NCBI RefSeq assembly: GCF_002001105.1 | Contig: NZ_MUNP01000059.1 | Coordinates: forward strand, 62,001 to 126,000 | Direction of reading: 5' to 3' | DNA from: Rhodanobacter sp. C06 | GTDB lineage: Bacteria > Pseudomonadota > Gammaproteobacteria > Xanthomonadales > Rhodanobacteraceae | DNA length: 64,000 bases | Shown: piece by piece, positions 16,701 to 44,164 of the stretch | How the letters are laid out: the number at the start of each line of letters is the position of its first letter | Numbering within the stretch: the stretch's first letter is position 1 | Notes under the pieces: model-generated | What the model saw: only the letters and a program-made list of their open reading frames with translations | Told to the model about the DNA's origin: nothing | Database searches by the model: none | Translations under genes and position numbers: made by a program

Positions 16701-16961
16701 AGAGCCTGTTCAATATCTCCGCGTGGCCCGCGCCGGGAGCTGTTTGCGCGCAGGCCAAGGAAGAACGAGGGAGTGGACGTCCGTCCACGACTGAGTGATG
16801 ACGCAGGGATGCGGGCAAACAGACCCGGCCCTTCGGGTTGCCTTGCCGTGGCCGCGATGCGGCAGCGCGGCTTGACCTGCCAGTCAGGCAGGCGCTGCGC
16901 CACGCGCCACCACCTGGCAGCCACGGCAAGGCAACGCGGGCTACGTGGAGATATTGAACAC
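16701..16961. repeat. Structured three-way-junction element, copy 1
   Basis: About 260 bp directly after the stop codon (16962-16964, minus strand) of the FKBP gene. Stem P1: 16708-16731 with 16936-16959, 24 bp with two G-T pairs. P2: 16732-16752 with 16810-16829, capped by GTGGACGTCCGTCCAC (16773-16788). P3: 16837-16852 with 16920-16935, 16 bp perfect, ending in further hairpins (CCTGCC/GGCAGG). P1, P2 and P3 abut with almost no linker, a classic three-way junction. A second copy at 43898-44164 keeps P2 nearly identical but has different, still complementary P1 and P3. It fills the gap between the Lys-rich gene and the FKBP gene; no coding frame is supported here. Confidence 0.85.
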
Positions 16962-17405
16962 TTAGTTCGGATTGACCTTCAGCAGCTTGAGCTCGAACAC
17001 CAGCGAGGCATTGGGCGGGATCACGCCGCCGGCGCCGTGTGCGCCGTAGCCGAGTTCGGCGGGAATCAGCAGGGTGCGTTCGCCGCCCACGTGCATGCCG
17101 GCCACGCCCTGGTCCCAACCCTTGATGACCATGCCTTGGCCCAGGGTGAAGGAGAACGGTTCGTTGCCGTGGTCGGCGGTGCTGTCGAACTTCGTGCCGT
17201 GCTTGTCCTTGGCGGTGTCGTCGTACAGCCAGCCGGTGTAGAGCACCTGCACGGTCATGCCGGGCTTGGCCTCGGCACCGCTGCCGACCTTGGTGTCGAT
17301 GGTGGTGAGCTTGTCCACCTGGCCGTGAGTGGCGGCGGTGGATTGCGGCGCGTGGTTGCAGGCGGCGAGGGCGAACAGGGCGAGCAGGGGCAGCAGCCAG
17401 CGCAT
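16962..17405 (-). CDS. FKBP-type peptidyl-prolyl isomerase, lipoprotein
   Basis: A 147-aa envelope protein with lipoprotein signal MRWLLPLLALFALAAC (lipobox LAAC, Cys16) followed by one FKBP domain. Family motifs include VQVLYTGWLYD, GTKFDST, FTLGQGMVIKGWDQGVAGMHVGGERTLLIPAELGYG and IPPNASLVFELKLL. It should speed cis-trans isomerisation at prolines in exported proteins. The start at 17405 places the lipobox correctly; a longer frame runs into the palindrome at 17433-17507. Confidence 0.92.
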   Translation of the reverse strand: MRWLLPLLALFALAACNHAPQSTAATHGQVDKLTTIDTKVGSGAEAKPGMTVQVLYTGWLYDDTAKDKHGTKFDSTADHGNEPFSFTLGQGMVIKGWDQGVAGMHVGGERTLLIPAELGYGAHGAGGVIPPNASLVFELKLLKVNPN

Positions 17406-17432
17406 GAGCAACTCCAGGCATGGGGAATGGGG

Positions 17433-17507
17433 GCAGGAGCGCACCCTGTGCGCGAATGCTCTTGCCGGTGTGCCGAAAAGAGCTTCGCGCACAAGCTGCA
17501 CTCCTGC
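17433..17507. repeat. Palindrome, GGAGCGCACCCTGTGCGCGA family
   Basis: Inverted repeat with left arm GCAGGAGCGCACCCTGTGCG plus CGA and a diverged right arm 17485-17507, upstream of the FKBP gene. A nearly perfect copy of the same family is inside ccmH at 39679-39756. Confidence 0.75.
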
Positions 17508-17519
17508 ATGATGGCGGAT

Positions 17520-18074
17520 TCAGGCGACGGCGTAATCGCCCATGCGCGCCTGCGGGCGAATCGCCAGCGTGCGGTCGCCGCTGATCAGCTGCAGCTCGCC
17601 GTCCTGGATCAGGCACTGCAGGCGCATGCCGCGATCGCACAGCGCGGCCAGTGCGCGCACGTCGGTTTCCGGGATGTCCAGCACGGCGAGATTGTCGTTG
17701 CGGGCGAGCGCGCCGGCCAGCTTGTCCCACCAGATGTCCGCGCCGCGTCCGCCGTAGGTGAACACCACGACCTGGCGCGCGCGGCCGCAGGCCTTGCGGA
17801 TGCGCGACTCGTCCGGCTGGCCGACTTCGATCCACAGCTCGATCTCGTCGGTATACGCCTTGCGCCACAGCGCCGGCTCGTCCTCGTCGCTGAGGCCCTT
17901 GCCGAACTCCAGCCGCTCGTCCGCGAACAGCACGAACGCGAGCAGGCGCACCATCAGGCGCTCCTCGGTCTCGGACGGATGCCGTGCCAGTGTCAGCGCA
18001 TGGCTGGCGTAGTAATGCCGGTCCATGTCGCTGATCGACAGCTCGGCCTTGTGGATGGTGGCGTTGAGGGCCAT
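17520..18074 (-). CDS. yaeQ: YaeQ family protein
   Basis: A 184-aa protein matching YaeQ along its length: MALNATIHKAELSISDMDRHYY at the start, HPSETEERLMVRLLAFVLFA, GLSDEDEPALW, EIELWIEVGQPDE, and GDYAVA at the end. YaeQ has a restriction-endonuclease-like (PD-(D/E)xK) fold, and the E. coli gene was found as a suppressor of rfaH loss; its real role is unclear. The start at 18074 is the usual family N-terminus. Confidence 0.9.
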   Translation of the reverse strand: MALNATIHKAELSISDMDRHYYASHALTLARHPSETEERLMVRLLAFVLFADERLEFGKGLSDEDEPALWRKAYTDEIELWIEVGQPDESRIRKACGRARQVVVFTYGGRGADIWWDKLAGALARNDNLAVLDIPETDVRALAALCDRGMRLQCLIQDGELQLISGDRTLAIRPQARMGDYAVA

Positions 18075-18117
18075 GTGCGTGCCTCGAGGACTGCAGCCGC
18101 ACATTGTACGCGCTGGC

Positions 18118-18861
18118 TCAGGCCGCCGCGGCCTGCGGCTGCGGCCAGACGTGCGCGGGGTAGTAGACCCGCATCATGCGCGCCACGTAGTCGACCAGGT
18201 TCGGATGGCGCTCGGCAGCCGCGCGCAGCGGCGTGTCGAAGAACGGGGTGAGGATCGCCGCGAGCACGCCGAAGGCGATCGCGTCGACGGCGTGCGGCCG
18301 GTCGCCGAACAGATATTCGCTCTCGCCCAGCAGCATGGCGATCGCATCGATGGAACGCGTGCCCAGTTCGGCGATCTGCTCGCGGCTGTGGCGGCCCAGG
18401 CCGTGCGCGTGCAGCTCGTTCTGCTTGGCGGCCTGCATGTCCTCGCGCAAGCGTTCGCGGATCGCCTCGGGCGCCCGGTCGGCGAAATGCGCAGGTCCCC
18501 TGGCGAAGTTCGCCGCGTCGATCCAGCGGAACCACACCATCGCCCAGTAGAGATGGTCCTCGACCATGCGTTCGATCGCCCAGGCTTCGGCGCGCTGGCG
18601 TGCGTCCAGGCCCGCGTCCAGGTCCACCCCGTGTTTGCGTTCAAGGTAGGCGCGGATGAAGCTGGAATCGCACACCAACTCGCCGGCGTCGTCGACGTAC
18701 GGCAGCTTGCCCTTGGGGGCTTCCGGCGGGATCGCGAACAGCTTGCGGTACGGCAGGTGGGCCATCTGCAGCTGCACCTCGGTCTTGGTGACGAAGGGGC
18801 TGGGATCGGGCAGGCCGAAGGCCGGGGCGCAACCGTACAAGGTGATGGGGGCGGTGGTCAT
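18118..18861 (-). CDS. Glutathione S-transferase family protein (Tom37/FAXC-like)
   Basis: A 247-aa protein with thioredoxin-like N-terminus (ITLYGCAPAFGLPDPSPFVTK, then PPEAPKGKLPYVDDAGELVCDSSFI) and an all-helical C-terminal domain ending near GDRPHAVDAIAFGVLAAIL. The GKLPYV and DSSFI segments mark the GST glutathione-site region, and the overall pattern is closest to the FAXC/Tom37-like subgroup. The catalytic role is uncertain. Confidence 0.8.
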   Translation of the reverse strand: MTTAPITLYGCAPAFGLPDPSPFVTKTEVQLQMAHLPYRKLFAIPPEAPKGKLPYVDDAGELVCDSSFIRAYLERKHGVDLDAGLDARQRAEAWAIERMVEDHLYWAMVWFRWIDAANFARGPAHFADRAPEAIRERLREDMQAAKQNELHAHGLGRHSREQIAELGTRSIDAIAMLLGESEYLFGDRPHAVDAIAFGVLAAILTPFFDTPLRAAAERHPNLVDYVARMMRVYYPAHVWPQPQAAAA

Positions 18862-18969
18862 GGCGAGGCTCCGTGGAAGTTGCGGGGAGTCTGGCGATGT
18901 CCTGCTGACAGCCTTGTGTCAGCAGGACGAACGGCGAGGCATGACTCCGGCCCGTCGAACGCGGGGGGC

Positions 18970-19725
18970 TCACGCCTTGGGCAACGCATCCAGCAGCGGC
19001 TTGATCAGGTCCAGCGGCAGCGGGAACACGATGGTGGAGGCCTTGCCGCTGCTGGACATGTCGGCCAGCGTCTGCAGGTAGCGCAGCTGCAGCGCCTGCG
19101 GCTGCTGCGACAGCATCGCGGCGGCGTCGCGCAGTTTCTCGGCGGCCTGCAGCTCGCCCTCGGCATGGATCACCTTGGCGCGCCGCTCGCGCTCGGCCTC
19201 GGCCTGGCGGGCGATCGCGCGCACCATGGTCTCGTTGAGGTCGACGTCCTTGATTTCGACGTTGGTGACCTTGATGCCCCAGGGGTCGGTGGCCTCGTCG
19301 AGGATCTGCTGCAGGCTGTGGTTGATCGAGTCGCGCTGCGACAGGATCTCGTCCAGCTCGTGCTGGCCCAGCACCGAGCGCAGCCGGGTTTGCGACAGCT
19401 GGCTGGTGGCCTGCAGGAAGTTCTCCACCTGCAGCACCGACTTGTCCGGCTCCACCACGCGGAAATACACCACCGCGTTCACCCGCACCGAGACGTTGTC
19501 GCGCGAGATCACGTCCTGCGGCGGCACGTCCATCACGGTCACGCGCAGGTCCACCCGCGTCATGCGCTGCACGATGGGCACCAGGATCACCAGGCCCGGA
19601 CCCTTGATGCCGGTGTAGCGGCCCAGCGTCAGCACCACGCCGCGCTGGTACTCCGGCAGCACCTTGATCGACAGGAACAGCAGCAGGACCACCACGATGA
19701 CGACGACACCACCGAACCCGATCAT
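18970..19725 (-). CDS. Slipin (SPFH/band 7 membrane protein)
   Basis: A 251-aa stomatin-like protein. One N-terminal membrane segment ([20 protein letters not shown]) precedes the SPFH domain with [55 protein letters not shown] and [22 protein letters not shown] coiled-coil-like [17 protein letters not shown] helix follows. The start overlaps the upstream nfeD stop by 4 bp. Slipin and NfeD proteins are standard partners in membrane microdomain or quality-control complexes. Confidence 0.95.
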
Positions 19726-21131
19726 GAAAGCTCTCCTTTATTCGCCTGCGAGGGCGTGACGTGAAGCAGCAAGCCGTGCCGTGCAGTGACGCGCACGCGC
19801 GTCCCGGCCGGCAGCGCGACTTCGCAATGTACTCGCCAGCGTTCGCCGCCGATCAGCGCCCAGCTCTCGCCGCCGGCCGACACCGCCTGCAGCAGCTCGC
19901 CGCCGGCCTGCAGCATCGGTTCGTCGCCGAGGAACGGCCTGGCCCGGCGCGCGCGCGACACCAGCCGCAGCAGCATGGCCAGCAACGCGACCGCACAGAA
20001 GGCGAGGCCGGCGATCACGCCCACGTTCACCTCGTAGCCCGGCACGCCGCGGTGGAACAACATGATCGAGCCGATCACGAACGCGATCACGCCACCGATG
20101 CCGACCACGCCCGCGGTGGGCACGAAGGCTTCCGCCAGCAGCAGGCCGATGCCCAACGCCATCAAGGCCAGCCCCGCGTAGTTCACCGGCAGCAGTTGCA
20201 ACGCGTACAGGCCCACCAGCAGGCAGATGCCGCCGGTGACGCCGGGCAGGTAGGTACCGGGGTGGAACGCTTCCAGGATCAGCCCGTAGATGCCGGCCAG
20301 CAGCAACAGGTAAGCGACGGTCGGATTGGTGATGATGCCCAGGAAGCGCGCCCGCCAGTCCGGCGGGTAGTCGTGCACGGCCAAGCCGCGCAGCTTCAGT
20401 ACCACGCTTCGGTCGCCAAGCTTCACCGTGCGGCCGTCGGCCTGCGCCAGCAGCGCATCGACATCGGCGGCGACGAAGTCGACCACGCGCTGGCTGGCCG
20501 CCTCGCTGGCGGTGAGCGTGGCCGCGCCGCGCACCGCCTGCTCGGCCCAGGCCGCGTTGCGTCCGTGCAGTTGCGCCAGCGAGCGGATGTAGGCGATCGC
20601 ATCGTTGAGCACCTTGCGGCTTTCGGCGTCGGGTGCGGGGCCACCGGACTCGGGCGAGCCGCTGCTTTTGGATGACGCGGGCGGGGTGCCGCCGATCGGC
20701 AGCGGCGTGCCGCCGCCGAGGCTGACCGGGGTCGCCGCGCCCAGGTGGGTGGCCGGCGCCATCGCCGCGATCGGGCAGGCATACAGGATGTAGGTGCCGG
20801 CCGAGGCCGCGCGCGCGCCGGCCGGCGCCACGTAGCCGAGCACCGGCAGCCGCGATGCCAGGACCGCGCTGACGATGCGCCGCATCGATTCGGCGAGGCC
20901 GCCAGGCGTGTCCATCTGCAGCACGATCGCCGTGGCGCCGTCGGCGTCGGCTTGCCGCATCGCAGCATCCACGTATTCCGCCGCGGCCGGTCCGATCGGG
21001 CCGTTCAGGTCGATCCGCGCCACGAAGCCGGCGTCGCCGCGTGCAGCCAGCGGCGATCCGGTAGCGAGCGCGAGCAGCGCCAGCGCCAGGCAGATGACGG
21101 CACCGAGGTTGAGCCATGGCCTGCGCCACAT
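19722..21131 (-). CDS. nfeD: NfeD family membrane-bound serine protease
   Basis: A 469-aa protein with an N-terminal signal anchor, a ClpP-like protease domain ([17 protein letters not shown]; the nucleophile Ser in [15 protein letters not shown]; catalytic Lys expected after), several C-terminal transmembrane helices (about 230-380), and a final NfeD OB-fold domain. It should cleave membrane proteins such as stomatin-like partners. The start at 21131 (MWRRPWLN) gives a proper signal segment. It is coupled to the slipin gene by ATGA. Confidence 0.93.
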
Positions 21132-21406
21132 GCAGATCTCCTTCCGAATTGCGGCGCCGTCACAGTGCGCCGGCAGGTGTTGCGGCAATGTCTAGGCAGT
21201 TTCCGGGCAGCGCGGTGGATGGTCCCGACTTGAGGAAACCCTGGTTTTGCTCATCATCCCGGCTTTCGCCGGGGTGGCGAACCTTGCGCGCCGGAGTATT
21301 TGGCGAAGCGCGCCGGCCGGGTCAGACGGTACTTTCGGGGCAAAATTTCGCGGTGCGCCCGATCCACGCTATCGTGCGCGGCAGCGTCCATCCGGGGAGT
21401 ACCAGC

Positions 21407-23407
21407 GTGAACCCATCCGCATCCAGCGCGTCCTCGCGCGCCGAACTGACCCTGCGCGGCCTGATCATCGGCATCGTGATCACCGTGTTGTTCACCGCGG
21501 CCAACGTGTTCTTCGGACTCAAGGCTGGCCTCACGTTCTCCACATCGATCCCGGCGGCGGTGATCTCGATGGCGATCCTCAAGGCCATGCGCGACGCCAC
21601 CATCCAGGAGAACAACATCGTGCAGACGGTGGCCTCGGCCGCCGGCACGTTGTCCTCGATCATCTTCGTGTTGCCGGGCCTGATCATGGTGGGTTGGTGG
21701 ACGGGCTTCCCGTTCTGGATGTCCTTCGGCATCTGCGCCACCGGCGGCGTGCTGGGCGTGATGTACACCATCCCACTGCGCCGCGCGCTGGTGACCGACT
21801 CGGACCTGCCGTACCCGGAAGGCGTGGCCTGCGCCGAGGTGCTCAAGGTGGGCTCGGGTTCGTCGGAGGCCGCGGCCGAGTCGGTGGAATCAGGCGGGGC
21901 GGGGCTGAAGGCAGTGCTGGCTGGCTCGATCGTCTCGGCGGTGTTCTACGTGGTGGTGCAGACCAAGCTGTTCGCCACCTCGGTGTCGAGCTATTTCCGT
22001 ATCGGCGACAAGGGGGCGGCCACCGGTTTCGATTTCAGCCTCTCCTTTGCGCTGTTCGCGGTGGGCCACCTGGTCGGCCTGTGGGTGGGTGTGGCGATGC
22101 TGTTCGGCGCGGTGATCAGCTGGTCGTGGGCGGTGCCGCACTTCTTGCTGCTGCACCCGGAGACCGGGGCGGCGATAGACGCGGCGCAGGCCACCTGGAG
22201 CCACTATGTGCGCTTCGTGGGCGCCGGCACCATCGGCGTGGCGGCGATCTGGACCCTGGCCAAGCTGGTCAAGCCGGTGGTTGGCGGCCTGGCCGGCGCG
22301 ATGGCCGCCGCGCGCGTGCGCAAGGCCGGCCAAGCGCACACGCTGGCGCGCACCGAGCAGGACATGCCGATTGGCATCGTCGGCCTGATCACCTTGCTGT
22401 GCTTGATCCCGGTGGCCTTGCTGCTGTGGCATTTCAGCACGATCAGCGGGCTGGGCGGGCATACCTGGTTGCTGGTGGGCGGCGGTGTGCTGTTCGTGGT
22501 GATCCTGAGCTTCCTGGTCTCCACGGTGTGCGGCTACATGGCGGGCCTGATCGGTTCGTCGAACAGCCCGCTGTCGGGTATCGGCATCCTGGTGGTGATC
22601 ATCGCTGCGCTGCTGCTGGTGCTGTTCGTGAAGGCGCTGGTGCCGGCGGAGGCGGGCAAGGCGTTGGTGGCGTTCGCGCTGTTCATCACCTCGATCGTGT
22701 TCGCGGTGGCCTCGATCGCCAACAACAACTTGCAGGACCTCAAGACCGGTCAGCTGGTCGACGCCACGCCGTGGAAGCAGCAGGCGGCGCTGGTGGTCGG
22801 CGTGATCGCCGGCGCGCTGGTGATCCCGCCGGTGCTGGATCTGCTGCAGCACGCCTACGGCTTCCTTGGCGCGCCGGGTGCGAACCCGGCGACCGCGCTA
22901 CCGGCGCCGCAGGCCGGGTTGATCTCGGCATTGGCGCAAGGCGTGATCCAGAACAACATCGACTGGAGCCTGATCGGCCTGGGTGCCGGCATCGGCGTGG
23001 CGCTGATCGTGCTGGACGCGGTGCTGGCGAGCACCACCAAGTCGGTGCGCCTGCCGCCGCTCGCGGTGGGACTGGGCATGTACCTGCCGACCTCGACCAC
23101 TCTGATGGTGGTGGTCGGTGCGCTGGTCGGGGCGTGGTTCGACAAGCGCGCCGAGCGCGGTCCGAAGGCGGAGCCGACCAAGCAGCTCGGCGTGCTGCTG
23201 GCCTCGGGCCTGATCGTGGGCGAGAGCTTGCTCGGGGTGCTGGTAGCCGCGTTGGTGGCCTTCACCGGCAAGCCCATGCCGCTGGCCCTGGTCGGTTCGG
23301 GGTTCGACACTGCGGCGATCTGGATCGGCGGCATCGTGTTCGCGGGCAGCGTGGTGGTGATGTATCGCTGGATCGCGCGCATGGGGCAGGGCACATCCGC
23401 GCGGTAA
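21407..23407 (+). CDS. OPT family oligopeptide transporter
   Basis: A 666-aa inner-membrane protein with about 15 hydrophobic segments, typical of prokaryotic OPT transporters that take up peptides. It has TANVFFGLKAGLTFSTSIPAAVISMAIL near the N-terminus, ENNIVQTVASAAGTLSSIIFVLPGL, and DLPYPEGVACAEVLK, which are signature segments of the family. The GTG start at 21407 is chosen because GGGGAG lies 8 nt upstream. Transcribed divergently from nfeD; the 275-bp gap includes a short CATCCCGGCTTTCGCCGGGG hairpin. Confidence 0.93.
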   Translation: MNPSASSASSRAELTLRGLIIGIVITVLFTAANVFFGLKAGLTFSTSIPAAVISMAILKAMRDATIQENNIVQTVASAAGTLSSIIFVLPGLIMVGWWTGFPFWMSFGICATGGVLGVMYTIPLRRALVTDSDLPYPEGVACAEVLKVGSGSSEAAAESVESGGAGLKAVLAGSIVSAVFYVVVQTKLFATSVSSYFRIGDKGAATGFDFSLSFALFAVGHLVGLWVGVAMLFGAVISWSWAVPHFLLLHPETGAAIDAAQATWSHYVRFVGAGTIGVAAIWTLAKLVKPVVGGLAGAMAAARVRKAGQAHTLARTEQDMPIGIVGLITLLCLIPVALLLWHFSTISGLGGHTWLLVGGGVLFVVILSFLVSTVCGYMAGLIGSSNSPLSGIGILVVIIAALLLVLFVKALVPAEAGKALVAFALFITSIVFAVASIANNNLQDLKTGQLVDATPWKQQAALVVGVIAGALVIPPVLDLLQHAYGFLGAPGANPATALPAPQAGLISALAQGVIQNNIDWSLIGLGAGIGVALIVLDAVLASTTKSVRLPPLAVGLGMYLPTSTTLMVVVGALVGAWFDKRAERGPKAEPTKQLGVLLASGLIVGESLLGVLVAALVAFTGKPMPLALVGSGFDTAAIWIGGIVFAGSVVVMYRWIARMGQGTSAR

Positions 23408-23481
23408 TCGCGGACGCTTGTTCATCGCCTGCAACAGAGCCTGCCCTAAACTAGAAGCCTCCCAGGGAAAACGAGCGTCGC

Positions 23482-27747: not shown

Positions 27748-27760
27748 GCGGCGCGCACGC

Positions 27761-34589: not shown

Positions 34590-34982
34590 ATGGCTACCAA
34601 GACCACTGCCAAGAAAGCCCCCGCCAAGGCCGCCAAGCCGGCGCCGAAGGCCGCTCCCGCCGCGATCAAGCCGATCAAGGACTCGCTCAGCAAGTCCGGC
34701 CTGATCTCCCACATCGCCCAGCAGACCAGCGTCGAGACCAAGCACGTCAAGGCCGTGCTCGCCGCGCTGGAGCACGCCGTGCTCGGTGCCGTACACAAGA
34801 AGGGCGCCGGCCAGTTCACCCTGCCGGGCCTGTTCAAGATCAACGCGATCCAGGTGCCGGCCAAGCCGAAGCGCACCGGCATCAACCCGTTCACCAAGCA
34901 GGAACAGGTGTTCGCGGCCAAGCCGGCCACGGTGAAGGTGAAGGTGCGTCCGCTGAAGAAGCTCAAGGACGCCGCGCTCTGA
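34590..34982 (+). CDS. HU-family DNA-binding protein with histone-H1-like N-terminal tail
   Basis: A 130-aa nucleoid protein. Residues 1-32 form a Lys/Ala/Pro tail (TKTTAKKAPAKAAKPAPKAA), and residues 36-130 an HU/IHF-type domain with SLSKSGLISHIAQQTSVETKHVKAVL and the arm KPKRTGINPFTKQEQVFAAKPATVKVKVRPLK. It should bind and compact DNA; the tail adds non-specific affinity, as in other xanthomonads and deinococci. The start at 34590 is used; no better signal exists upstream. Confidence 0.9.
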   Translation: MATKTTAKKAPAKAAKPAPKAAPAAIKPIKDSLSKSGLISHIAQQTSVETKHVKAVLAALEHAVLGAVHKKGAGQFTLPGLFKINAIQVPAKPKRTGINPFTKQEQVFAAKPATVKVKVRPLKKLKDAAL

Positions 34983-34990
34983 GGCGCGCC

Positions 34991-35021
34991 GATGCCTGCC
35001 GGCGGTTCGCCGGCAGGCATC
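34991..35021 (+). terminator. Strong hairpin after the HU gene
   Basis: A perfect 13-bp stem GATGCCTGCCGGC/GCCGGCAGGCATC with loop GGTTC begins 8 bp after the stop codon. There is no T-tract, so it may instead protect the mRNA 3' end. Confidence 0.6.
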
Positions 35022-35208
35022 GCCTCTCGGCCCGGATGACGGGCAGGGCACGGGCCGCGCAAGCGGCCTGTGTCGTATCCGGCGTCATGCCGATGGCTCC
35101 CGTCGATCGAGTCGCGGCATGCCCCGCATGTGCCACGCGCCATCGATCGCGCGGGATTACCGCGGGCTAGACTGTCCGCCGGAATCATGGGCCAGCGAGG
35201 AGCAGTGC

Positions 35209-36138: not shown

Positions 36139-36248
36139 CGGCCGGCGTCGGCAAGCGCGGCCCCCTGGAGGCTGTCGCCACCGACCCTCGGCTTGCGGAT
36201 GTCGCGGGTAAGCAAGTGCGAAGCGGCGCCATCCGCCCGGATTGCGGA

Positions 36249-36275
36249 CAAAACAAAGGCCCCGAACGGGGGCCT
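36249..36275 (-). terminator. Rho-independent terminator after tRNA-Leu
   Basis: On the minus strand a stem AGGCCCC/GGGGCCT with a 5-nt loop is followed by TTTGTTTTG, 8 bp beyond the tRNA 3' end. Confidence 0.85.
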
Positions 36276-36282
36276 GAGTCTT

Positions 36283-36368
36283 TGGTACCGGTGATAGGAC
36301 TCGAACCTACACTCTGTCGCCAGAAGCGGATTTTGAGTCCGCCGCGTCTACCATTCCGCCACACCGGC
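36283..36368 (-). tRNA. tRNA-Leu (anticodon CAA)
   Basis: An 86-nt class II tRNA with CCA encoded. The acceptor GCCGGTG pairs with CACCGGT, the anticodon loop CTCAAAA gives CAA (reads UUG), a long variable arm TGGCGACAGAGTG follows, and the T arm contains GTTCGAGTCC. Confidence 0.97.
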
Positions 36369-36381
36369 ACGTGGGCTGTGC

Positions 36382-36410
36382 ATTATGCCGGCTTCAGTGC
36401 ACCGGGTCGA
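36382..36410 (-). promoter_or_regulatory. Promoter of tRNA-Leu
   Basis: On the minus strand a -35 TCGACC (36410-36405) and a -10 CATAAT (36387-36382) are 17 bp apart, 13 nt before the tRNA. The -35 lies inside the end of the cysteine dioxygenase gene. Confidence 0.5.
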
Positions 36411-36975
36411 GGCCCAGCTGGCGCTCGCAGCGCTCGTAGCCGGTTTCGCCGGCCAGCGGCTGAAACACCGCGCAGTGGGTCATGTTGCCGGAGTAGATGT
36501 GCAGGCTGACCGCGATGTCGCGGTCGCTGGGGTTGCGGATGGTGTGGTACTCGTGCGGCGGGATCAGGCTGCCGGCGGAGCCGGGGCCGGCCTGCACCGA
36601 GCCCACCGGCTGGAAGCGGCAGTGGCCGTCCTGGTCGTCGAGCCGTTCGTACTGCACTACGTCGAGCGCGCCGTACCACACGCCTTCCACGCACCACATG
36701 CCGGCATGGTCGTGGATCGGCGTGCCTTGGCCCGGGCCCCAGGTCATCGCCACCACGCAGTAGCCGTGGTCCTCGCTGCGGTACAGCTCGCGCCGCGCGT
36801 AGCGGCCTTCGGCGGTTTCGAGCACGCACTCGGGCAGTTGCACCTCGTGGCTGCGGATCAGCCGGCACAGGCTGTTGCGCAGGCTGTCGGTGATCGCCGG
36901 CGTGCTGCCCTGGGCGACCGCGGTGTCGATCGCGGCGATCAGCTGGCGACAGCCGGGGAATTCGGTGGTGAGCAT
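36394..36975 (-). CDS. Cysteine dioxygenase family (cupin) protein
   Basis: A 193-aa cupin with the iron-binding motif GTPIHDHAGMWCVEGVWYGAL and a second motif LIPPHEYHTIRNPSDRDIAVSLHIY. It matches bacterial cysteine (or 3-mercaptopropionate) dioxygenases, which turn the thiol into a sulfinate. The choice of substrate is not settled by sequence. It ends just before the tRNA-Leu promoter. Confidence 0.85.
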   Translation of the reverse strand: MLTTEFPGCRQLIAAIDTAVAQGSTPAITDSLRNSLCRLIRSHEVQLPECVLETAEGRYARRELYRSEDHGYCVVAMTWGPGQGTPIHDHAGMWCVEGVWYGALDVVQYERLDDQDGHCRFQPVGSVQAGPGSAGSLIPPHEYHTIRNPSDRDIAVSLHIYSGNMTHCAVFQPLAGETGYERCERQLGLDPVH

Positions 36976-37043
36976 GGCGTTCTCGGTAAAACTGGCAAGG
37001 TGTCACCATTCTACCAGTGCACCGCGAGCAGGTTCCTCGACAG

Positions 37044-38168
37044 TCAGAGCCGCGCGAGAAAGCTGCCGATGGCGTGGCTGTAGTTCTCGATGTCGACGAG
37101 GAAGGCGTCGTGGCCCTGCGGCGAGTCCAGCGCCACGAATTCCACCGCGGCACCGGCGGCCTGTAGGCCTTCAGCGATCTGCTCCTGCTGCTCCAGCGGG
37201 AACAGGATGTCGGTGCTGACGCCGATCACCAGCGCGCGCTCGATGCGGATGCGCTTGAGGCCTTCGGCCACGCTGCCCCCGCCGTATTCGGCGATGTCGA
37301 ACCAGTCGCTGGCGCGCGAGAGGTAGAGGTAGCTGTTCGGATCGAAGCTGCGCACGAAGCGGCGGGCGTGGCCTTCGAGGTAGGACTCCACCTGGAATTC
37401 GAAACCAAACGGCTGTTCCTCGCGCTGCTCGGCGTCGAGGCGGATGCGCGCGAAGCGGCCATTCCATTCCATCGCCGAGCGGTAGGTGATGACGCCCAGC
37501 TTGCGCGCGATGCTCATGCCCATGTCGGGGTAGCGCGTGCCGTCGGCATGGATGTCGTAGTCGCCGCCGGCCCAATTGGGGTCGAGCCGGATCGCCTCGC
37601 GCTGCAGCGAGCGGATCGCGATGGCGAACGGCTGCGCCTGCGGCGCGGTGTCCACGCTGACGTGGGCGCGCACGGTGCCGGGATGCAGCAGCATGTAGGC
37701 CAGCGCGGCCATGCCGCCCATCGAGCAGCCGACCAGACAGGCGAGGCGCTCGATGCCGAGGCCTTGCACCACGTCGTGCGCGGCGTTCGCCACGTCTTCC
37801 AGCGCGAGTTCCGGAAAATCCAGCCGGTACGCCTCGCCGGTGGCGGGGTTGATCGAGGCGGGGCAGGTGGAGCCCTTGTCGCTGCCCAGCGAGTTCACGC
37901 AGATCACGAACCAGCGCGAGCTGTCGATGGCCTTGCCAGGGCCGGCCATGCCTTCCCACCAGCCGGGTGTGGGATCTTCCGCGCTCGACATCATGTGCGC
38001 GCTGGGCGAGAGGCCGGTGAGCACCAGGATCGCGTTGTCGCGCGCGGCGTTCAGCGTGCCCCAGGTCTCATAGGCCACGCGCGCGCCGTGCAGCGTGCCG
38101 CCGCGCTTCATGGGGAACGGCGAGGGCAGGACACAGTAGCGGCGGGCGTCGGCCGATCCTTCGGGCAT
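37044..38168 (-). CDS. metX: MetX-type acyltransferase (homoserine or serine O-acyltransferase)
   Basis: A 374-aa alpha/beta hydrolase-fold acyltransferase. The nucleophile is Ser149 in VGCSMGGMAAL; Asp and His are in STDILFP and GHDAFLVD. The segments GLSPSAHMMSS, WWEGMAGPGKAID and NSLGSDKGSTCPASINPATG are MetX landmarks. MetX acylates homoserine for methionine synthesis; relatives in Xanthomonadales have been reported to succinylate serine for cysteine synthesis, so the substrate may be serine and succinyl-CoA. It follows ccmI by 3 bp and is probably co-transcribed with the ccm operon. Confidence 0.88.
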   Translation of the reverse strand: MPEGSADARRYCVLPSPFPMKRGGTLHGARVAYETWGTLNAARDNAILVLTGLSPSAHMMSSAEDPTPGWWEGMAGPGKAIDSSRWFVICVNSLGSDKGSTCPASINPATGEAYRLDFPELALEDVANAAHDVVQGLGIERLACLVGCSMGGMAALAYMLLHPGTVRAHVSVDTAPQAQPFAIAIRSLQREAIRLDPNWAGGDYDIHADGTRYPDMGMSIARKLGVITYRSAMEWNGRFARIRLDAEQREEQPFGFEFQVESYLEGHARRFVRSFDPNSYLYLSRASDWFDIAEYGGGSVAEGLKRIRIERALVIGVSTDILFPLEQQEQIAEGLQAAGAAVEFVALDSPQGHDAFLVDIENYSHAIGSFLARL

Positions 38169-38171
38169 GGC

Positions 38172-39212
38172 TCAAAGCACCTTGTCGATGGTGATGGCGA
38201 TGGGCGTCCTGCGGTCGGTGTCCACGACGCCGGCGCTGCCTTCGAGGTCGCCGGGCTGGGCGATCGGCTGGCCGCTGTGGCTGATGCGCGCGGAAACCAC
38301 CACGCGCGCCACCGAGGAGAGCTTCAGCTCCGGCGTCATCGCCATCGCGTCGCTGAGCGTGGCGGCGACGGGCAGCGCGCCGGCGTCGAACTTCGCCACG
38401 GCCAGCGGCATCGGCGGACCGCTCACCGCGCGGGCGTAGACGTAGAGCTGGTCGCCGGGTTTGAGCTTGCCCTTGAGCGCGGGAGCGAGGCTCACTTCCA
38501 CCTTCAGCGCGGCGCCCTGGCGGGCGACGGGCGCGGGCTCGTCGGCGGGCTTGATGCCGGCGCGGGCCTCGGCGTTCGCGATCTGCTCGGCCACGGCCTT
38601 GGCCACGCTGGAGCCGGGTTCCAGCAGCGGCTGCAGCTTGCGCCAGGTGGCGGCGGCGTTCGCGTACTGCGTGTGCTGGAACTGGCTGATGCCGAGCAGC
38701 CACAGCGCGCGCTGGCTGTCCGGCTGCAGCTCCAGCGCGTGCTGCAGCAGCGCTAGCGCGCGGCCCTCGATCAGGTGGTCGCTGCGCGCCATCGAGTCGG
38801 TCTCGGCCCAGCCCACCATCGCCGCCACGTTGTTCGGATCGATCTTGAGCGCCTGGTCCCAGGCGTCGCGTGCTTCCTCCGGCTGCTTCAGCGCGGTGGT
38901 GGCCTGGGCGAGCAGGGCCCAGCCCTGTGCATCGTTCGGCTGTTGCTGGAGATGCGCGCGCAGTTCGGTCAGCGCCTGCTGGAAATCCATCGGCTTGGGC
39001 GCGGCGGGCACGCCATCCAGCGCGACGGGCGTGCCGATGTGCAGGTACAGCGCGCCGGCGCCGATCGGCAGCAGCAGGGCGATAGCCAGCGCCAGCGCGA
39101 ACACACTGCGTGGGCGGCCATGGCGGCGACCTTCGCGCAGCAACGGCACCAGCAGCAGGGCCAGCGCCACCGCAACCATCGCGGCGGCGAGCAGATAGAA
39201 CGCGAGCTTCAC
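38172..39212 (-). CDS. ccmI: Cytochrome c biogenesis protein CcmI (CycH)
   Basis: A 346-aa inner-membrane protein with two N-terminal helices (FYLLAAAMVAVALALLLVPLL; VFALALAIALLLPIGAGALYL) and a periplasmic TPR domain (about 85-230, e.g. NDAQGWALLAQATTALKQPEEARDAWDQAL). CcmI holds apocytochrome c for heme ligation with CcmFH. The start overlaps the ccmH stop (ATGA). Confidence 0.92.
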   Translation of the reverse strand: MKLAFYLLAAAMVAVALALLLVPLLREGRRHGRPRSVFALALAIALLLPIGAGALYLHIGTPVALDGVPAAPKPMDFQQALTELRAHLQQQPNDAQGWALLAQATTALKQPEEARDAWDQALKIDPNNVAAMVGWAETDSMARSDHLIEGRALALLQHALELQPDSQRALWLLGISQFQHTQYANAAATWRKLQPLLEPGSSVAKAVAEQIANAEARAGIKPADEPAPVARQGAALKVEVSLAPALKGKLKPGDQLYVYARAVSGPPMPLAVAKFDAGALPVAATLSDAMAMTPELKLSSVARVVVSARISHSGQPIAQPGDLEGSAGVVDTDRRTPIAITIDKVL

Positions 39213-39787
39213 CAGTCGTCCCCCATGTCGGCCGGCGCGTTGCCGGCCTGCCTGCCGTCGGCAGGCTTGTCATCGTCGATGGCACCGTTGCCGCGGTTGC
39301 GCCGGCGGATCGCCACCGTGACCACCGCGCCGCCGGCCAGCAGGATCGCCAGCGGCCCGAACCACAGCAGCCAGGTGCCCGGCTTCAGCGGCGGGTCGTA
39401 CAGCACGAAGTCGGAATAGCGATCCACCAGGTACTGCTTGATCTCGGCGTCGCTCTTGCCCTGCTGCATCAGCTGGAACACTTCCAGGCGCAGGTCGCGG
39501 GCGAGGTCGGCGTTGGAGTCGGCCAGGTTCTCGTTCTGGCAGACCATGCAGCGCAGCTGCTTCGTGAGGTTCTGGAAGCGCACTTCCTGCGCGTGGTCCT
39601 GGAACGGCAGCGGCTCGATCGCGCCGCTGGCGGCGAAGGCGTGGCCGGCAAACATCAGCAGCGCTACCACCGAAACCCGTAGGAGCGCACCCTGTGCGCG
39701 ACGGCTCTTGCGCGGGCTTTCGGCGAAGGGCATTCGCGCACAGGGTGCGCTCCTACCGGAGGGGCGTTGCCACGGGAACAGGCTCAT
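39209..39787 (-). CDS. ccmH: Cytochrome c biogenesis protein CcmH, with in-frame palindrome insertion
   Basis: A 192-aa apocytochrome-reducing thiol protein. The active motif LRCMVCQNENLADSNADLA puts Cys80 and Cys83 in the periplasm, and one C-terminal helix (GTWLLWFGPLAILLAGGAVV) anchors it. The start at 39787 is fixed by the 4-bp ATGA overlap with ccmG. Residues about 10-36 (SAPCARMPFAESPRKSRRA...) are encoded by the 78-bp palindrome 39679-39756, a multiple of three, so the reading frame passes through it. The signal-like helix VSVVALLMFAGHAFA follows. Without this insert the protein would have the normal length. Confidence 0.9.
   Translation of the reverse strand: MSLFPWQRPSGRSAPCARMPFAESPRKSRRAQGALLRVSVVALLMFAGHAFAASGAIEPLPFQDHAQEVRFQNLTKQLRCMVCQNENLADSNADLARDLRLEVFQLMQQGKSDAEIKQYLVDRYSDFVLYDPPLKPGTWLLWFGPLAILLAGGAVVTVAIRRRNRGNGAIDDDKPADGRQAGNAPADMGDDW
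39679..39756. repeat. Palindrome of the GGAGCGCACCCTGTGCGCGA family inside ccmH
   Basis: Perfect 23-bp arms (39679-39701 and 39734-39756) around a 32-nt spacer. It is a sister of 17433-17507. Total length 78 bp, exactly 26 codons, fully inside ccmH and upstream of its signal-anchor helix. Confidence 0.9.
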
Positions 39788-40326
39788 GGCGCCTCCCGCT
39801 TCACGGCATCGATCGCCGGCTGCAGTTCCCGCGCGATCACCTCGGGGGTGAGCGGGCCGATGTGCTTGTAGCGGATCACGCCCTTCGCATCGATCAGGAA
39901 GCTCTCCGGCGCGCCGTACACGCCGAAGTCGATCGCGGTGCGGCCGGGCTGGTCGGCGATCACCAGGTCGTAGGGGCTGCCGTGCTCGCGCAGCCAGCGC
40001 CTGGCGTCGTCGGGCACGTCCTTGTAGTCGTAGCCCACCAGCGCGATGCCGAGCTGGCGGCCGTCGGCCATCAGCACCGGGTGTTCCTCGGCGCAGGCCA
40101 CGCACCAGCTGGCGAACACGTTGATGAGGTAGGGCTTGCCGAGCAGGCTGGCCTTGGTCACGGTCTGGTCGGGCGCGTCCAGTTTCGGCAGCGCGAAATC
40201 CGGCGCGGGCTTGTCGATCAGCGGCGACGGCACGTAGCGCGCGTCGTGCCAGCTGTTCCACCAGATGCCGAAACCGAACAGGCCGACCAGGCTGATGAAG
40301 ACGAGGAGCGGCACGAAGCGCTTCAT
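39784..40326 (-). CDS. ccmG: Thiol:disulfide interchange protein DsbE/CcmG
   Basis: A 180-aa membrane-anchored thioredoxin-like protein. The N-terminal helix (FVPLLVFISLVGLFGFGIWW) leads to a periplasmic domain with ASWCVACAEEHPVL (Cys75 and Cys78) and IDAKGVIRYKHIGPLTPEV with the cis-Pro region GAPESFLID. It keeps CcmH and apocytochrome c reduced. It overlaps ccmF upstream and ccmH downstream by 4 bp each. Confidence 0.95.
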   Translation of the reverse strand: MKRFVPLLVFISLVGLFGFGIWWNSWHDARYVPSPLIDKPAPDFALPKLDAPDQTVTKASLLGKPYLINVFASWCVACAEEHPVLMADGRQLGIALVGYDYKDVPDDARRWLREHGSPYDLVIADQPGRTAIDFGVYGAPESFLIDAKGVIRYKHIGPLTPEVIARELQPAIDAVKREAP

Positions 40327-42302
40327 GCAGGCGACTCCTGCGGTTGCGGCTCGATCGGCGGAAATGCGGCTTCGGCCGCGATGCGCTTGATACGGAAGCG
40401 GCGGTCACCGGCGCAGACGAAGCCACCCAGCATCATCAGCAGGCCGCCGCCCCAGATCCAGCGGATGAAGGGCTTGTAGTACAGCCGCAGCGCCCAGGCA
40501 CCCTCGATGTTGTTCGCGTCCATCGGCTCGCCCAGCGCCACGTACAGGTCGCGGAACACGCCGGCGTCCACGGCCGACTCGGTCTGCACCTGCTCGCGCG
40601 CATAGGTGCGCTTCTGCGGATGCATCACCGCCACGGTGCGGCCGTCGCGCGACACGGTGACCACGCCCTGGTCGGCGCGCCAGTTCGGGCCGGTGGTGCG
40701 GTGCACGCCGTCGAAGCGGAAGTCGTAGCCGGCTATGACTTCGTGCTGGCCAGGCGCCAGGCGCACGTCATGGGTGACGCTCAGCGACTCGGACAGCAAC
40801 ACGCCGATCACGAACACGGCGACGCCCAGGTGCGCCAGCAGCATGCCTGCCATCTCGGCCGGATAGCGGCGGCCACGCGGCAGCTCGCGCCAGCGCTTGA
40901 GCGCGTACAGCAGCACACCCACCGCGATCCACACCGCCGCGGCCACGCCGGCGATCGCCTTCAGCTGGCCCTGCACGAAGAACGCCGCCACGATCGCGCA
41001 GGCCGCCGCGGCGATGCCGGCGCGCAGCGCCACCTGTTTCAGCGCGCCGCCGTCGGCCTTGCCCCAGTGCAGGAACGGCCCGAACGGCAGCAACAGCACG
41101 ACCGGCGCCATCAGCAGCGGGAACAGCAGGCCGAAATAGGGCGGGCCCACCGAGATGCGGCCCAGGTGCAGCGCGTCGCCGATCAGCGGGAACAGCGTGC
41201 CCAGCATCACCATCGCCGCGGCCACCGCGAACATCAGGTTGCCGATCAGCAGCGCGGTCTCGCGCGAGATAATCTGGAAAGGCCGGCCGCCGGTCACCTT
41301 CGGCGCGCGCAAGGCGTACAGCAGCAGCGAGCCGCCCACCACGATCGCCATGAAGATCAGGATGAACACGCCGCGGCGCGGATCGGAGGCGAACGCATGC
41401 ACCGAAGTGAGCACGCCCGAGCGCACCAGGAAGGTACCCAGCAGCGAGAACGAGAACGCGAAGATCGACAGCAGCAGGGTCCACGCGCGCAGGCCGCCGC
41501 GCTTCTCGGTGATCGCCTGAGCGTGGATCAGCGCCGCGCCGATCAGCCACGGCATGAAGCTGGCGTTCTCCACCGGGTCCCAGAACCACCAGCCGCCCCA
41601 GCCCAGTTCGGCATAGGCCCACCAGCTGCCGGCCACGATGCCCAGGGTGAGGAAGCCCCACGCCGCGTTGGTCCACGGTCGCGCCCAGCGCACCCAAGCC
41701 TGTTCGACTTCACCGCCGAGCAGTGCCGCGATGGAGAACGCGAACGCCACCGAGAAGCCCACGTAGCCCATGTACAGCACGGGCGGGTGGAAGGTCATGC
41801 CGGGGTCCTGCAGCACCGGGTTGAGGTCGGCGCCGTTCGCCGGCATCGGCAGCAGGCGACCGAACGGATCGGAGGTGAAGATGATGAAGGCGAGGAAGCC
41901 GATCGCGACCAGTCCCATCACGCCCAGCACGCGCGCGGCGAACACCTCCGGCAGCTTGTGGCTCAGTGCGGCCAGCGCCACCGTCCACACGTTGAGGATC
42001 AGGATCCACAGCAGCAGCGAGCCCTCGTGCGCGCCCCATACCGCGGCGATGCGGTAGTACCAGGGCAGGGTGAGGTTGGAGTTGTCGGCCACGTATTGCA
42101 CCGAGAAATCGAAGTGCAGGAAGGCCCACGCGAGGATGCCGAACGCCATCGCCACGAACACCGCCTGGCCGGCGGCGGCGGGGCGGGCCACCGCCATCAG
42201 CGCGCGGTTGCCGCGCCACGCGCCGATCAGCGGCAGCACGCCTTGCGCGATGGCGAGCAGGAAGGCGAGTACCAGCGCGAGCTGGCCGAGTTCGGGGGTC
42301 AT
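40323..42302 (-). CDS. ccmF: Heme lyase CcmF
   Basis: A 659-aa inner-membrane protein with about 15 helices. The tryptophan-rich heme-handling motif WGGWWFWDPVENASFMPWL is present, as are FHPPVLYMGYVGFSVAFAFS and SSF-like GSWWAYAELGWGGWW. CcmF attaches heme from CcmE to cytochrome c with CcmH. It begins 106 bp after ccmE, a gap filled by a repeat, and overlaps ccmG by 4 bp. Confidence 0.95.
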   Translation of the reverse strand: MTPELGQLALVLAFLLAIAQGVLPLIGAWRGNRALMAVARPAAAGQAVFVAMAFGILAWAFLHFDFSVQYVADNSNLTLPWYYRIAAVWGAHEGSLLLWILILNVWTVALAALSHKLPEVFAARVLGVMGLVAIGFLAFIIFTSDPFGRLLPMPANGADLNPVLQDPGMTFHPPVLYMGYVGFSVAFAFSIAALLGGEVEQAWVRWARPWTNAAWGFLTLGIVAGSWWAYAELGWGGWWFWDPVENASFMPWLIGAALIHAQAITEKRGGLRAWTLLLSIFAFSFSLLGTFLVRSGVLTSVHAFASDPRRGVFILIFMAIVVGGSLLLYALRAPKVTGGRPFQIISRETALLIGNLMFAVAAAMVMLGTLFPLIGDALHLGRISVGPPYFGLLFPLLMAPVVLLLPFGPFLHWGKADGGALKQVALRAGIAAAACAIVAAFFVQGQLKAIAGVAAAVWIAVGVLLYALKRWRELPRGRRYPAEMAGMLLAHLGVAVFVIGVLLSESLSVTHDVRLAPGQHEVIAGYDFRFDGVHRTTGPNWRADQGVVTVSRDGRTVAVMHPQKRTYAREQVQTESAVDAGVFRDLYVALGEPMDANNIEGAWALRLYYKPFIRWIWGGGLLMMLGGFVCAGDRRFRIKRIAAEAAFPPIEPQPQESPA

Positions 42303-42313
42303 GGCTGGAGGCC

Positions 42314-42441
42314 GGGAACGGGGAACGGGAAACGGGGAACGGTGTGTTGCGATGCGATGGACATGGTCTTGCTCCGGTCAGGCGATGGAGGACGGGACGC
42401 GATGGGCTTACCCGCCACCCGCTCCCCGTTCCCCGTTTCCC
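42314..42441. repeat. GGGAACGGGGAACGGG inverted repeat between ccmE and ccmF
   Basis: Facing arms, GGGAACGGGGAACGGGAAAC-type at 42314-42341 and GCTCCCCGTTCCCCGTTTCC at 42421-42440. The right arm reaches into ccmE and encodes its last residues. Confidence 0.7.
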
Positions 42442-42890
42442 TCTTCTTCGATCTTCTTGTCCGCATGCGCCTTCGCCATCGCGTCCTTGAGCTCCTTCGG
42501 CATGTAGGTCTCGTCGTGCTTGGCGAGCACCTCGGTGGCCACGAAGCGGGCGCCGTCCATGTGGCCGGTGGCGATCACCGACTGGTTGTCGCGGAACAGG
42601 TCGGGCAGGATGCCGGTGTATTCCACCGGCATCGCGCCTCCGGCGTCGACCACGGTGAAGGTGACCTGCAGCGAATCCTTGCTGCGCTGGATCGAACCGG
42701 CCTTGACCATGCCGCCGAGACGGAAAGTCTTGTACTGCGTCGCCTGACCCGACTGCACCTGGCTCGGGGTGAACAGGTAGTTCATGTTCTGCTGCAGCGC
42801 GTACACGCCGAGGCTGATCGCCAAGGCGGCGGCGATCGCCACCACGACCACGATGGTGAGCCGGCGCTTGCGGGTGGGGTTCATGGCCAT
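42408..42890 (-). CDS. ccmE: Heme chaperone CcmE
   Basis: A 160-aa periplasmic chaperone with one N-terminal helix ([24 protein letters not shown]), an OB-fold domain, and the heme-binding [12 protein letters not shown] with covalent His125 and Tyr129. The last residues, [13 protein letters not shown], come from an arm of the repeat 42314-42441, so the normal C-terminus has been replaced. The start at 42890 has AGGAA at good spacing. Confidence 0.94.
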
Positions 42891-42905
42891 GGATGTTCCT
42901 GCCCC

Positions 42906-43139
42906 TCAGGGCGATCGCGAAACGGAAGTGGCGCGACGCTCGCGCGCGGCCTGGCGCGTCAGCCGGCCGCGCAGTTCGCGCAGGATGCGGCGGCGGCGCA
43001 GCCGCGGCGCCAGCGTGTCGGCGACCAGCACTGCGAAGAACACCGCATAGGCCGGCCATACATAAGCCGCATAGCCGCCCATCCTGAAGAAGGCGGCCGC
43101 GTCGCCACCCACGGCCAGTAAGTGCTGCATGGCGCTCAT
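42906..43139 (-). CDS. ccmD: Heme exporter protein CcmD
   Basis: A 77-aa small membrane protein with one helix (GGYAAYVWPAYAVFFAVLVADTL) followed by a very basic tail (RLRRRRILRELRGRLTRQAARERRA), as in CcmD. It stabilises the CcmABC:CcmE complex. The start at 43139 overlaps the ccmC stop by 4 bp, which fixes the reading frame. Confidence 0.88.
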   Translation of the reverse strand: MSAMQHLLAVGGDAAAFFRMGGYAAYVWPAYAVFFAVLVADTLAPRLRRRRILRELRGRLTRQAARERRATSVSRSP

Positions 43140-43894
43140 GGAGTTGCCTCCGCCTCGGCGATCTGGCGCACCCAGTCCTTGCCGCCCTCCAGCGCCAGCA
43201 GGTCGGTGCGCGCGCGGCGGCACAGGCTGGCCGCATAGTAGGCCTTGGTGGCCAGCGTCATCACCAGCAGCGGCCACAGCATGTCCCAGGCCATCTTCGA
43301 ATGGCCGAACACGTTCACCGTGCTGCCCTGGTGCAAGGTGTTCCACCACACCACCGAGTAGTGCACGATCGGCACGTTGATCACGCCGATGATCGCGAGG
43401 AAGCTCGCGGCGCGCGCGCCCTGGCGGCGATCCTCGAACGCGTGGTAAAGCCCGATCACGCCGAGGTACAGGAACAGCAGCACCAGCTCGGAAGTGAGCC
43501 GCGCATCCCAGGTCCACCAGGTGCCCCACATCGGCTTGCCCCACAGCGAGCCGGTGACCAGGGTGATGAAGGTGAACGCCGCGCCGATCGGCGCCGATTC
43601 CATCGCCACCACCTCGGCCAGTTTCATGCGCCACACCAGCGCCATGAAGCCGGACACGCCCATCACCGCGTAGACGAACATGCTCATCCACGCGCTGGGC
43701 ACGTGGATGAAGATGATGCGGTAGGCGTCGCCCTGCTGGTAATCCGCCGGCGCCAGCACCAGGCCGCCGTACAGGCCGATCGCGCCGGCGAGCAGCGCCA
43801 GCCCCATCGCCCATGGCCGCACCGCACCCGCGAAGCGATAGAACGTCGGCGGCGAGCCGAGCTTGTGCAACCAGAGCGGGATCCACTTCGACAT
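43136..43894 (-). CDS. ccmC: Heme exporter protein CcmC
   Basis: A 252-aa inner-membrane protein with six helices and the heme-handling motif WGTWWTWDARLTSELVLLFLY; His residues in IIFIHVPSAWMS and VPIVHYSVVWWNTLHQG are the conserved ligands. It loads heme onto CcmE. The start at 43894 (MSKWIPLWLHKLG) is standard. Upstream lies the structured element copy 2 rather than a plain spacer. Confidence 0.95.
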   Translation of the reverse strand: MSKWIPLWLHKLGSPPTFYRFAGAVRPWAMGLALLAGAIGLYGGLVLAPADYQQGDAYRIIFIHVPSAWMSMFVYAVMGVSGFMALVWRMKLAEVVAMESAPIGAAFTFITLVTGSLWGKPMWGTWWTWDARLTSELVLLFLYLGVIGLYHAFEDRRQGARAASFLAIIGVINVPIVHYSVVWWNTLHQGSTVNVFGHSKMAWDMLWPLLVMTLATKAYYAASLCRRARTDLLALEGGKDWVRQIAEAEATP

Positions 43895-43897
43895 GCT

Positions 43898-44164
43898 AGA
43901 GCCTGCTAATGCCCGCCAAGTGCCCCGCGCCGGGATCTGTTTGCGCGCAGCCCAAGGAGGAACGAAGGAGTGGACGTCCGTCCACGACCGAGAGATGACG
44001 CCGGAATGCGGGCAAACAGACCCGGCCCTGCGGGTTGCCATCGAGTGGCCGCCATGCGGCAGCCCGCGGCTTGGCCTGACGGCCAGTCAGGCCGGCGCCA
44101 CGCCCTACCACCTGGCGACCACTCGATGACAACGCGAGGTACTTGGTGGGCATTAGCAGGCTCT
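43898..44164. repeat. Structured three-way-junction element, copy 2
   Basis: 267 bp that fill the whole gap between ccmB and ccmC. P1: 43898-43928 with 44134-44164, 31 bp with two G-T pairs and one mismatch. P2: 43929-43949 with 44007-44026, same sequence core as copy 1 (CTGTTTGC/GCAAACAG), capped by GTGGACGTCCGTCCAC (43970-43985). P3: 44034-44048 with 44119-44133, one mismatch. The innermost hairpin GCCTGAC/GTCAGGC differs from copy 1. Its right end overlaps the last base of the ccmB stop codon. Confidence 0.85.

What the first reader, a model, noticed from the sequence alone, without database searches (positions are those of the whole stretch)
16701..44164. Two copies of a ~260-bp three-way-junction element with covarying stems
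Seen in sequence: copies at 16701-16961 and 43898-44164 share the same fold. P2 (e.g. 16732-16752 with 16810-16829) and its hairpin GTGGACGTCCGTCCAC are nearly identical in both. P1 and P3 differ strongly between copies yet pair within each: P1 has 24 and 31 bp, and P3 begins GTTGCCTTGCCGTGG in one copy and GTTGCCATCGAGTGG in the other, each with its own complement. The innermost hairpin also changes in a compensating way (CCTGCC/GGCAGG versus GCCTGAC/GTCAGGC). P1, P2 and P3 meet with almost no linker. Both copies begin right at the stop codon of a minus-strand gene and have the same orientation. Inference: selection on structure, as for a structured RNA or a hairpin-forming mobile element. 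G-T pairs slightly favour the plus-strand form (four versus two).
Basis: partly seen in the sequence, partly recalled or inferred. Interest (0 to 1): 0.85.

Follow-up and report, generated by a model that had tools for sequence, protein, structure and literature searches.

The report
Folded jumping repeat at gene ends
The two look-alike stretches are copies of a small, gene-less jumping DNA element that often lands right at the ends of genes and keeps an elaborate branched fold even as its letters change, which makes it an unusual but recognisable member of a known kind of mobile repeat.

Summary
In detail: both copies fold as described (z -11.0 and -10.5). They belong to a dispersed family: 22 distinct full or near-full places in the own genome, and motif hits in 36 of 299 genomes of the order. 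It is a miniature inverted-repeat element (MITE) of the IS5 family: P1 is its terminal inverted repeat (GAGCCTG...CAGGCTC), with a TNA duplication in 43 of 117 copies (26 of 31 in Fulvimonas R45). The same ends flank an IS5-type transposase there, and empty sites exist in relatives for both window copies. Every TNA is a stop codon on one strand; 47 of 95 sites abut a gene's stop codon. The fold is constrained: in 92 aligned copies P1, P2 and P3 covary (0 of 500 shuffles reach the observed scores), and P2 carries four conserved tandem G.A mismatches. Strand evidence conflicts: P2 leans plus, P3 strongly minus, P1 neither. In a Rhodanobacter-rich set host genes mostly read the minus strand (47 versus 10 sites), but three other sets show no bias. 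Template switching could explain P1 but not the conserved mismatches. Function is unproven; I favour action as a folded segment of host mRNA. New variant of a known kind.

The parts
16702..16961 (+). MITE copy 1 (right terminal repeat shortened)
43899..44163 (+). MITE copy 2, 265 bp, between ccmB and ccmC
16699..16701 (.). TCA, left target triplet of copy 1 (right side reads TTA; the empty site in G010 reads GATGGCACTCAGTTCGG)
16962..16964 (-). TTA = stop codon (TAA) of the FKBP-type gene, right edge of copy 1
44164..44166 (-). TCA = stop codon (TGA) of ccmB, right edge of copy 2; the left flank reads CTA, so the duplication is not exact; empty sites of G002, G003 and G004 carry TCA here
43892..43894 (-). 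CAT = start codon of ccmC (Cytochrom_C_asm), 4 bp from the element
16702..16732 (+). P1 5' arm (terminal inverted repeat), copy 1
16936..16961 (+). P1 3' arm, copy 1 (truncated)
16733..16828 (+). P2 arm, copy 1
16759..16772 (+). 5' side of the tandem G.A module in P2, copy 1
   Evidence: alignment columns 59-72
16789..16802 (+). 3' side of the tandem G.A module in P2, copy 1
   Evidence: alignment columns 89-102
16837..16935 (+). P3 arm, copy 1
43899..43928 (+). P1 5' arm, copy 2
44134..44163 (+). P1 3' arm, copy 2
43930..44025 (+). P2 arm with tandem G.A module, copy 2
44034..44133 (+). P3 arm, copy 2

Best explanation
The element is a non-autonomous IS5-family MITE of about 265 bp. SHOWN: terminal inverted repeats, target duplication in many copies, dispersed copies, empty sites, and an IS5-type transposase gene with the same ends in one relative. 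INFERRED: that transposase moves the element in trans by acting on the outer part of P1. SHOWN: insertions mostly avoid gene interiors and often sit exactly at a stop codon; because every TNA is a stop codon on one strand, the duplication can rebuild the stop and spare the gene. SHOWN: the internal fold is conserved through covariation, and four tandem G.A mismatches in P2 are conserved. INFERRED (about 45%): the fold acts as RNA inside host transcripts read through the element, as a compact structured segment at gene ends and between operon genes that affects mRNA processing or decay and makes the insertion tolerable. Closing P1 would bring the stop codon of the upstream gene next to the start codon of the next one. 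Not shown: any transcript, any protein partner, any effect on expression.
For: MITE: 117 full copies extracted from 185 sequences; TNA duplicated exactly in 43 of the 80 with TNA on the left; by source 26 of 31 in R45, 3 of 21 own, 14 of 65 other. IS in L073 with ends GAGCCTGTTCAAAGTCTC and DUF4096 and DDE_Tnp_1 ORFs; NF033580 139.2 bits for the second ORF against a cut-off of 110. Empty sites. Insertion: 0 of 95 sites inside a called gene; 47 of 95 with a stop codon within 3 bp of an end, against 59 of 333 tolerated TNA triplets in the window; 15 of 17 fetched G018 copies, which have other ends and target CTAG. Structure: change on both sides in 26 of 31 P1 pairs, 18 of 32 P2 pairs, 29 of 43 P3 pairs; 0 of 500 shuffles reach any observed measure. 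G.A tandems in 77 to 91 of 92 per position; spacer pairs AU45/GC36/GU8 and GC36/AU29/GU11; in the 32 rows not found through the P2 motif 31-32 of 32, except columns 71/90 with 23. Host-transcript link: own plus 'other' set 47 sites with both neighbours reading the element's minus strand, 10 the plus strand; G010 11 versus 1, replication neutral at 10 versus 8. Conservation in place: in 10 of 21 pairs with matching flanks the element is more alike than both flanks, e.g. 94.7% against 85-86% (L261/L118) (indels not counted).
Against: No orientation bias in Fulvimonas R45 (6 ++, 7 --), G018 (5, 4) or one locus per genome (10, 10), so the transcription signal is not general; shared insertions also make sites non-independent. 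One of 30 loci lies inside a called gene. P1 tolerates G.T and A.C equally, unlike selection on one RNA strand. P2 points to the plus strand while host genes in the biased set read the minus strand. In some pairs the element is less alike than its flanks (window/L192 80.9% against 89-90%, L159/L093 80.5% against 88-94%, window/L186 96.6% against 97-99%). No promoter- or terminator-like site was found in or next to either copy.
Confidence: 0.6

Rival explanations
1. The complementary arms are kept equal mainly by mutation, not selection: replication template switching between inverted-repeat arms rewrites one arm from the other, so double changes look compensatory.
For: P1 has no strand preference among mismatches. 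Watson-Crick to Watson-Crick double changes occur at the same insertion site in different species: 29 over 21 pairs, 19 of them in the 17 pairs left after dropping one non-orthologous and three indel-shifted pairs (trios make pairs non-independent). P3 is inverted in L168. The mechanism is published for RNA hairpins (PMC8794818, outline and abstract seen).
Against: Four tandem G.A mismatches in P2 and C.A mismatches in P3 persist across genera beside covarying pairs; rampant templating would be expected to erase them.
Confidence: 0.3
2. The fold works as DNA: a cruciform or single-stranded hairpin used in transposition or bound by a protein, which would explain why P2 is constrained on one strand and P3 on the other.
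For: P1 neutral, P2 plus, P3 minus. Fold retained when the ends change type. Orthologous copies differ in decay.
Against: The ends shared by the autonomous IS are only about 18 bp. In G010 orientation follows transcription, not replication. Tandem G.A pairs can form in RNA and DNA alike (recalled).
Confidence: 0.25
3. P2 in its plus-strand form is an independent small RNA or riboregulator carried as cargo.
For: Conserved G.A module with a hairpin that varies as GTGGAC, GTGTAC, GTGTAT, GCGTAT and GTTTAT with matching partners and more G.T than A.C (27 of the 85 G.T come from one column).
Against: No sigma-70-like promoter found in or beside either window copy. No Rfam family at gathering score; weak matches only.
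Confidence: 0.12

Closest known systems
IS5-family MITEs
   Same: Short, terminal inverted repeats, small target duplication, many intergenic copies, an IS with matching ends
   Different: Nearly the whole element is a covarying branched fold with a conserved tandem G.A module, and the core occurs with at least two end types and targets (TNA and CTAG)
Correia elements (Neisseria) and ERIC (enterobacteria)
   Same: MITE-like repeats with stable RNA folds in transcripts; the review PMC10969869 (passages) reports RNase III cleavage of Correia transcripts and RNase E effects of ERIC
   Different: Other ends and taxa; no dedicated comparison was made, and processing was not tested here
REP/BIME palindromes
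   Same: Palindromic repeats outside genes, at 3' ends and between operon genes (recalled)
   Different: This element is much longer and has the terminal repeats and target duplication of a DDE transposon

Membership tests
MITE | terminal inverted repeats | tested here: met
   P1, 31 ungapped columns in 107 copies (kept if 22 or more columns pair): 3024 of 3317 cells Watson-Crick
MITE | target-site duplication | tested here: met
   TNA duplicated exactly in 43 of 117 copies; 26 of 31 in R45, 3 of 21 in the own genome; not exact in either window copy
MITE | under about 500 bp, no transposase | tested here: met
   201-327 bp among 117 copies, but the extraction kept only 200-400 bp; shorter forms of 50-187 bp
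MITE | dispersed multi-copy with empty sites | tested here: met
IS5-derived MITE | autonomous IS with the same ends | tested here: met
   L073 in G006; over the family cut-off in 2 of 8 genomes searched, not in G000 or G010
IS5-derived MITE | mobilised by that transposase | not testable with these tools
   needs a transposition assay
structured RNA | covariation beyond chance | tested here: met
   relatedness not fully controlled
structured RNA | one strand favoured by G.U wobble | tested here: inconclusive
   P1 neutral, P2 plus, P3 minus
structured RNA | transcribed | not testable with these tools
   no expression data
known Rfam family | match at gathering score | tested here: not met
   three tRNAs only in the window; weak matches, E 0.19 to 0.53

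The most novel reading that the evidence does not exclude
A transposable element whose spread is tied to an RNA fold: it inserts into stop codons, rebuilds the stop, and folds away in the mRNA so that the terminating ribosome and the next start codon stay close together. The fold, including a four-fold tandem G.A module, is then the trait by which copies are tolerated and kept, and in Rhodanobacter copies are retained in one orientation relative to transcription.
Probability: 0.15. Interest if true: 0.85.

Novelty: new variant of a known kind. Interest (0 to 1): 0.58.

Why it matters
It offers a natural set of many copies, young and old, with empty sites, in which selection on structure, template switching and orientation bias can be told apart. 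It also warns that covariation alone does not prove a functional RNA when a helix is made of transposon ends. The conserved tandem G.A module is a defined structure with no known partner.

Tried and rejected
Gene calls were wrong: the model was trained on shadow ORFs and put the ccm genes on the wrong strand. They were replaced by the GC3-trained caller, and their opposite orientation result is discarded. The pattern had 17 instead of 15 free bases, so their 0 of 369 and 0 of 299 mean nothing; one search repeats the order search with the right spacing (36 of 299, no hit in the reversed control shown). The class was not searched again. The corrected motif matched about half of 140 known copies (72 to 81), so absences are weak.

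Rows left out; 29 hits without recognisable ends; 107 of 117 copies; its P3 table was empty through an indexing slip and was redone with 98 of 117 (7 short, 6 without GGGTTG, 5 with indels, 1 without CAAC); 95 of 117 (22 short flanks). Alignment A1: 92 of 140 copies (distinct, 255-270 bp, L168 left out because P3 is inverted); 60 of the 92 came from the 19-base motif scan, which fixes columns 73-91, so conservation there is partly by construction; one search gives the 32 other rows; 17 of the 21 motif hits in G018; no 300-bp limit to neighbours was used there or. One search includes one pair that is not orthologous (L149/L014) and three shifted by indels (L109/L155, window/L192, L186/L192).

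Also tried: plasmid and phage collections, no match. Rfam. A plus-strand coding reading was looked at by eye only. A CsrA-type GGA loop was considered from memory; the loop varies. Papers: searches; no description of this element seen in their listings; PMC2267715 and PMC8794818 outline and abstract, PMC10969869 passages; the rest listing only.
Full report
What is there. Two copies, 16702-16961 and 43899-44163, fold into P1, P2, a small CCC-NNN-GGG hairpin and P3. The own genome gives 38 matches. After merging pieces, and counting once a pair that lies in an exact inverted duplication (L017 and L018, 3261 bp identical), these are 22 distinct full or near-full places plus fragments. Of 41 genomes first searched 19 match. 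With the P2 motif 36 of 299 genomes of the order match: by my hand count 29 of 76 in the own family and 7 in one other family (f2). The three Streptomyces loci and one Thermoleophilia locus that I looked at do not fold alike.

It is a MITE. Copies end in GAGCCTG...CAGGCTC. TNA is duplicated exactly in 43 of 117 copies: 26 of 31 in Fulvimonas R45, 3 of 21 in the own genome, 14 of 65 elsewhere. Neither window copy keeps an exact duplication. The same ends also bracket shorter elements of 50 to 187 bp that hold little more than P1, or P1 with P2 or P3 parts. In G006 the same ends flank an IS5-type transposase in two ORFs. No match over the family cut-off was found in G000 or G010, so the window copies may be stranded; G000 is a draft. 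At ccmB-ccmC the site is empty in at least G001, G002, G003, G004, G005, G009 and G013, and filled in G000, G010 and G008. At the FKBP gene it is empty in G010. G018 carries the same core with other ends (GGGCGTGTCAT) and target CTAG.

Where it sits. With a gene caller that recovers ccmB, ccmC and the FKBP gene (families), 0 of 95 sites are inside a gene, though 1 of 30 is. A stop codon lies within 3 bp of an end in 47 of 95 sites; in a crude control 59 of 333 tolerated TNA triplets in the window are gene stops. TAA, TGA, TTA and TCA are all stop codons on one strand, so the target itself favours this and the duplication can restore the stop. Of the 54 sites where both neighbours read the minus strand, 30 have the upstream stop within 3 bp, 18 have the next start codon 2 to 8 bp away, and 11 have both.

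Structure. In 92 aligned copies all three helices covary: scores 0.425, 0.168 and 0.226 against shuffled means 0.157, 0.084 and 0.059, and slid versions at or below 0.082. The controls do not fully remove relatedness. P2 has four tandem G.A mismatches at columns 60-61, 63-64, 67-68 and 71-72, opposite 100-101, 97-98, 93-94 and 89-90; they are conserved while spacer pairs change together. One spacer pair is poorer: columns 66/95 are unpaired in 19 of 92. The search motif fixes columns 73-91 in 60 rows; in the other 32 rows the G.A positions hold in 31 or 32, except 71/90 with 23.

Which strand. G.T on the plus strand is a wobble pair for plus RNA, and A.C is the same for minus RNA. P1: 126 G.T, 121 A.C. 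P2: 85 and 35, 27 of the 85 from one column. P3: 42 and 455, 331 of the 455 from five columns and so probably inherited. In 19 elements of other genera by the tool's labels P3 has 8 and 83, five of the eight in the inverted P3, and P1 19 and 11. Orientation in 95 sites: both neighbours reading the minus strand 54, the plus strand 16, convergent 11, divergent 9, rest incomplete. Minus versus plus by source: own genome 13 and 3, other 34 and 7, R45 7 and 6 (R45 against the rest p 0.06). G018 4 and 5. G010 11 and 1, with no replication bias, 10 against 8; G010 is close to the own genome and shares insertions with it. One locus per genome: 10 and 10. R45 plus G018 against the rest gives p 0.009, a comparison chosen after seeing the data. 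Sites shared by descent were not removed, so these p values are too small.

In-place evolution. Among 21 pairs of copies with matching flanks, the element is more alike than both flanks in 10 true pairs, mixed in 4, and less alike or equal in 6; one pair is not orthologous (my tally). In 17 usable pairs P1 shows 19 Watson-Crick to Watson-Crick double changes, five of them in L119/L112. This fits selection on some copies, but template switching or conversion between copies can also make such changes.

Verdict. An IS5-family MITE, not seen described in the searches made here, with an unusually constrained fold. Its function is unproven.

Noticed in passing
   Followed up: partly
L017/L018 (G000:C44): 3261 bp occur twice in exact inverted orientation about 66 kb apart on one contig; real or an assembly artefact
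   Followed up: partly
L073 1902-3136: The IS carries partial tandem duplications of its left and right ends, the outer pair flanked by TGA
   Followed up: partly
L019, L020, L021, L023, L186: A roughly 40-bp hairpin-bearing insert with its own matching variants sits in P2 in four copies but between P2 and P3 in L186
   Followed up: no
L065, L070, L075: 50-55 bp near-perfect palindromes made of little but the terminal repeats
   Followed up: no
L211, L212, L214, L216 beside the FKBP gene: A different palindromic repeat (TTACTTCTCTTTGG...AAAGAGAAGTAACT or close variants) recurs next to the gene in these relatives
   Followed up: no
L321 (G018): IS5-type remnant near a CTAG-flanked end that resembles the G018 MITE ends
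   Followed up: partly
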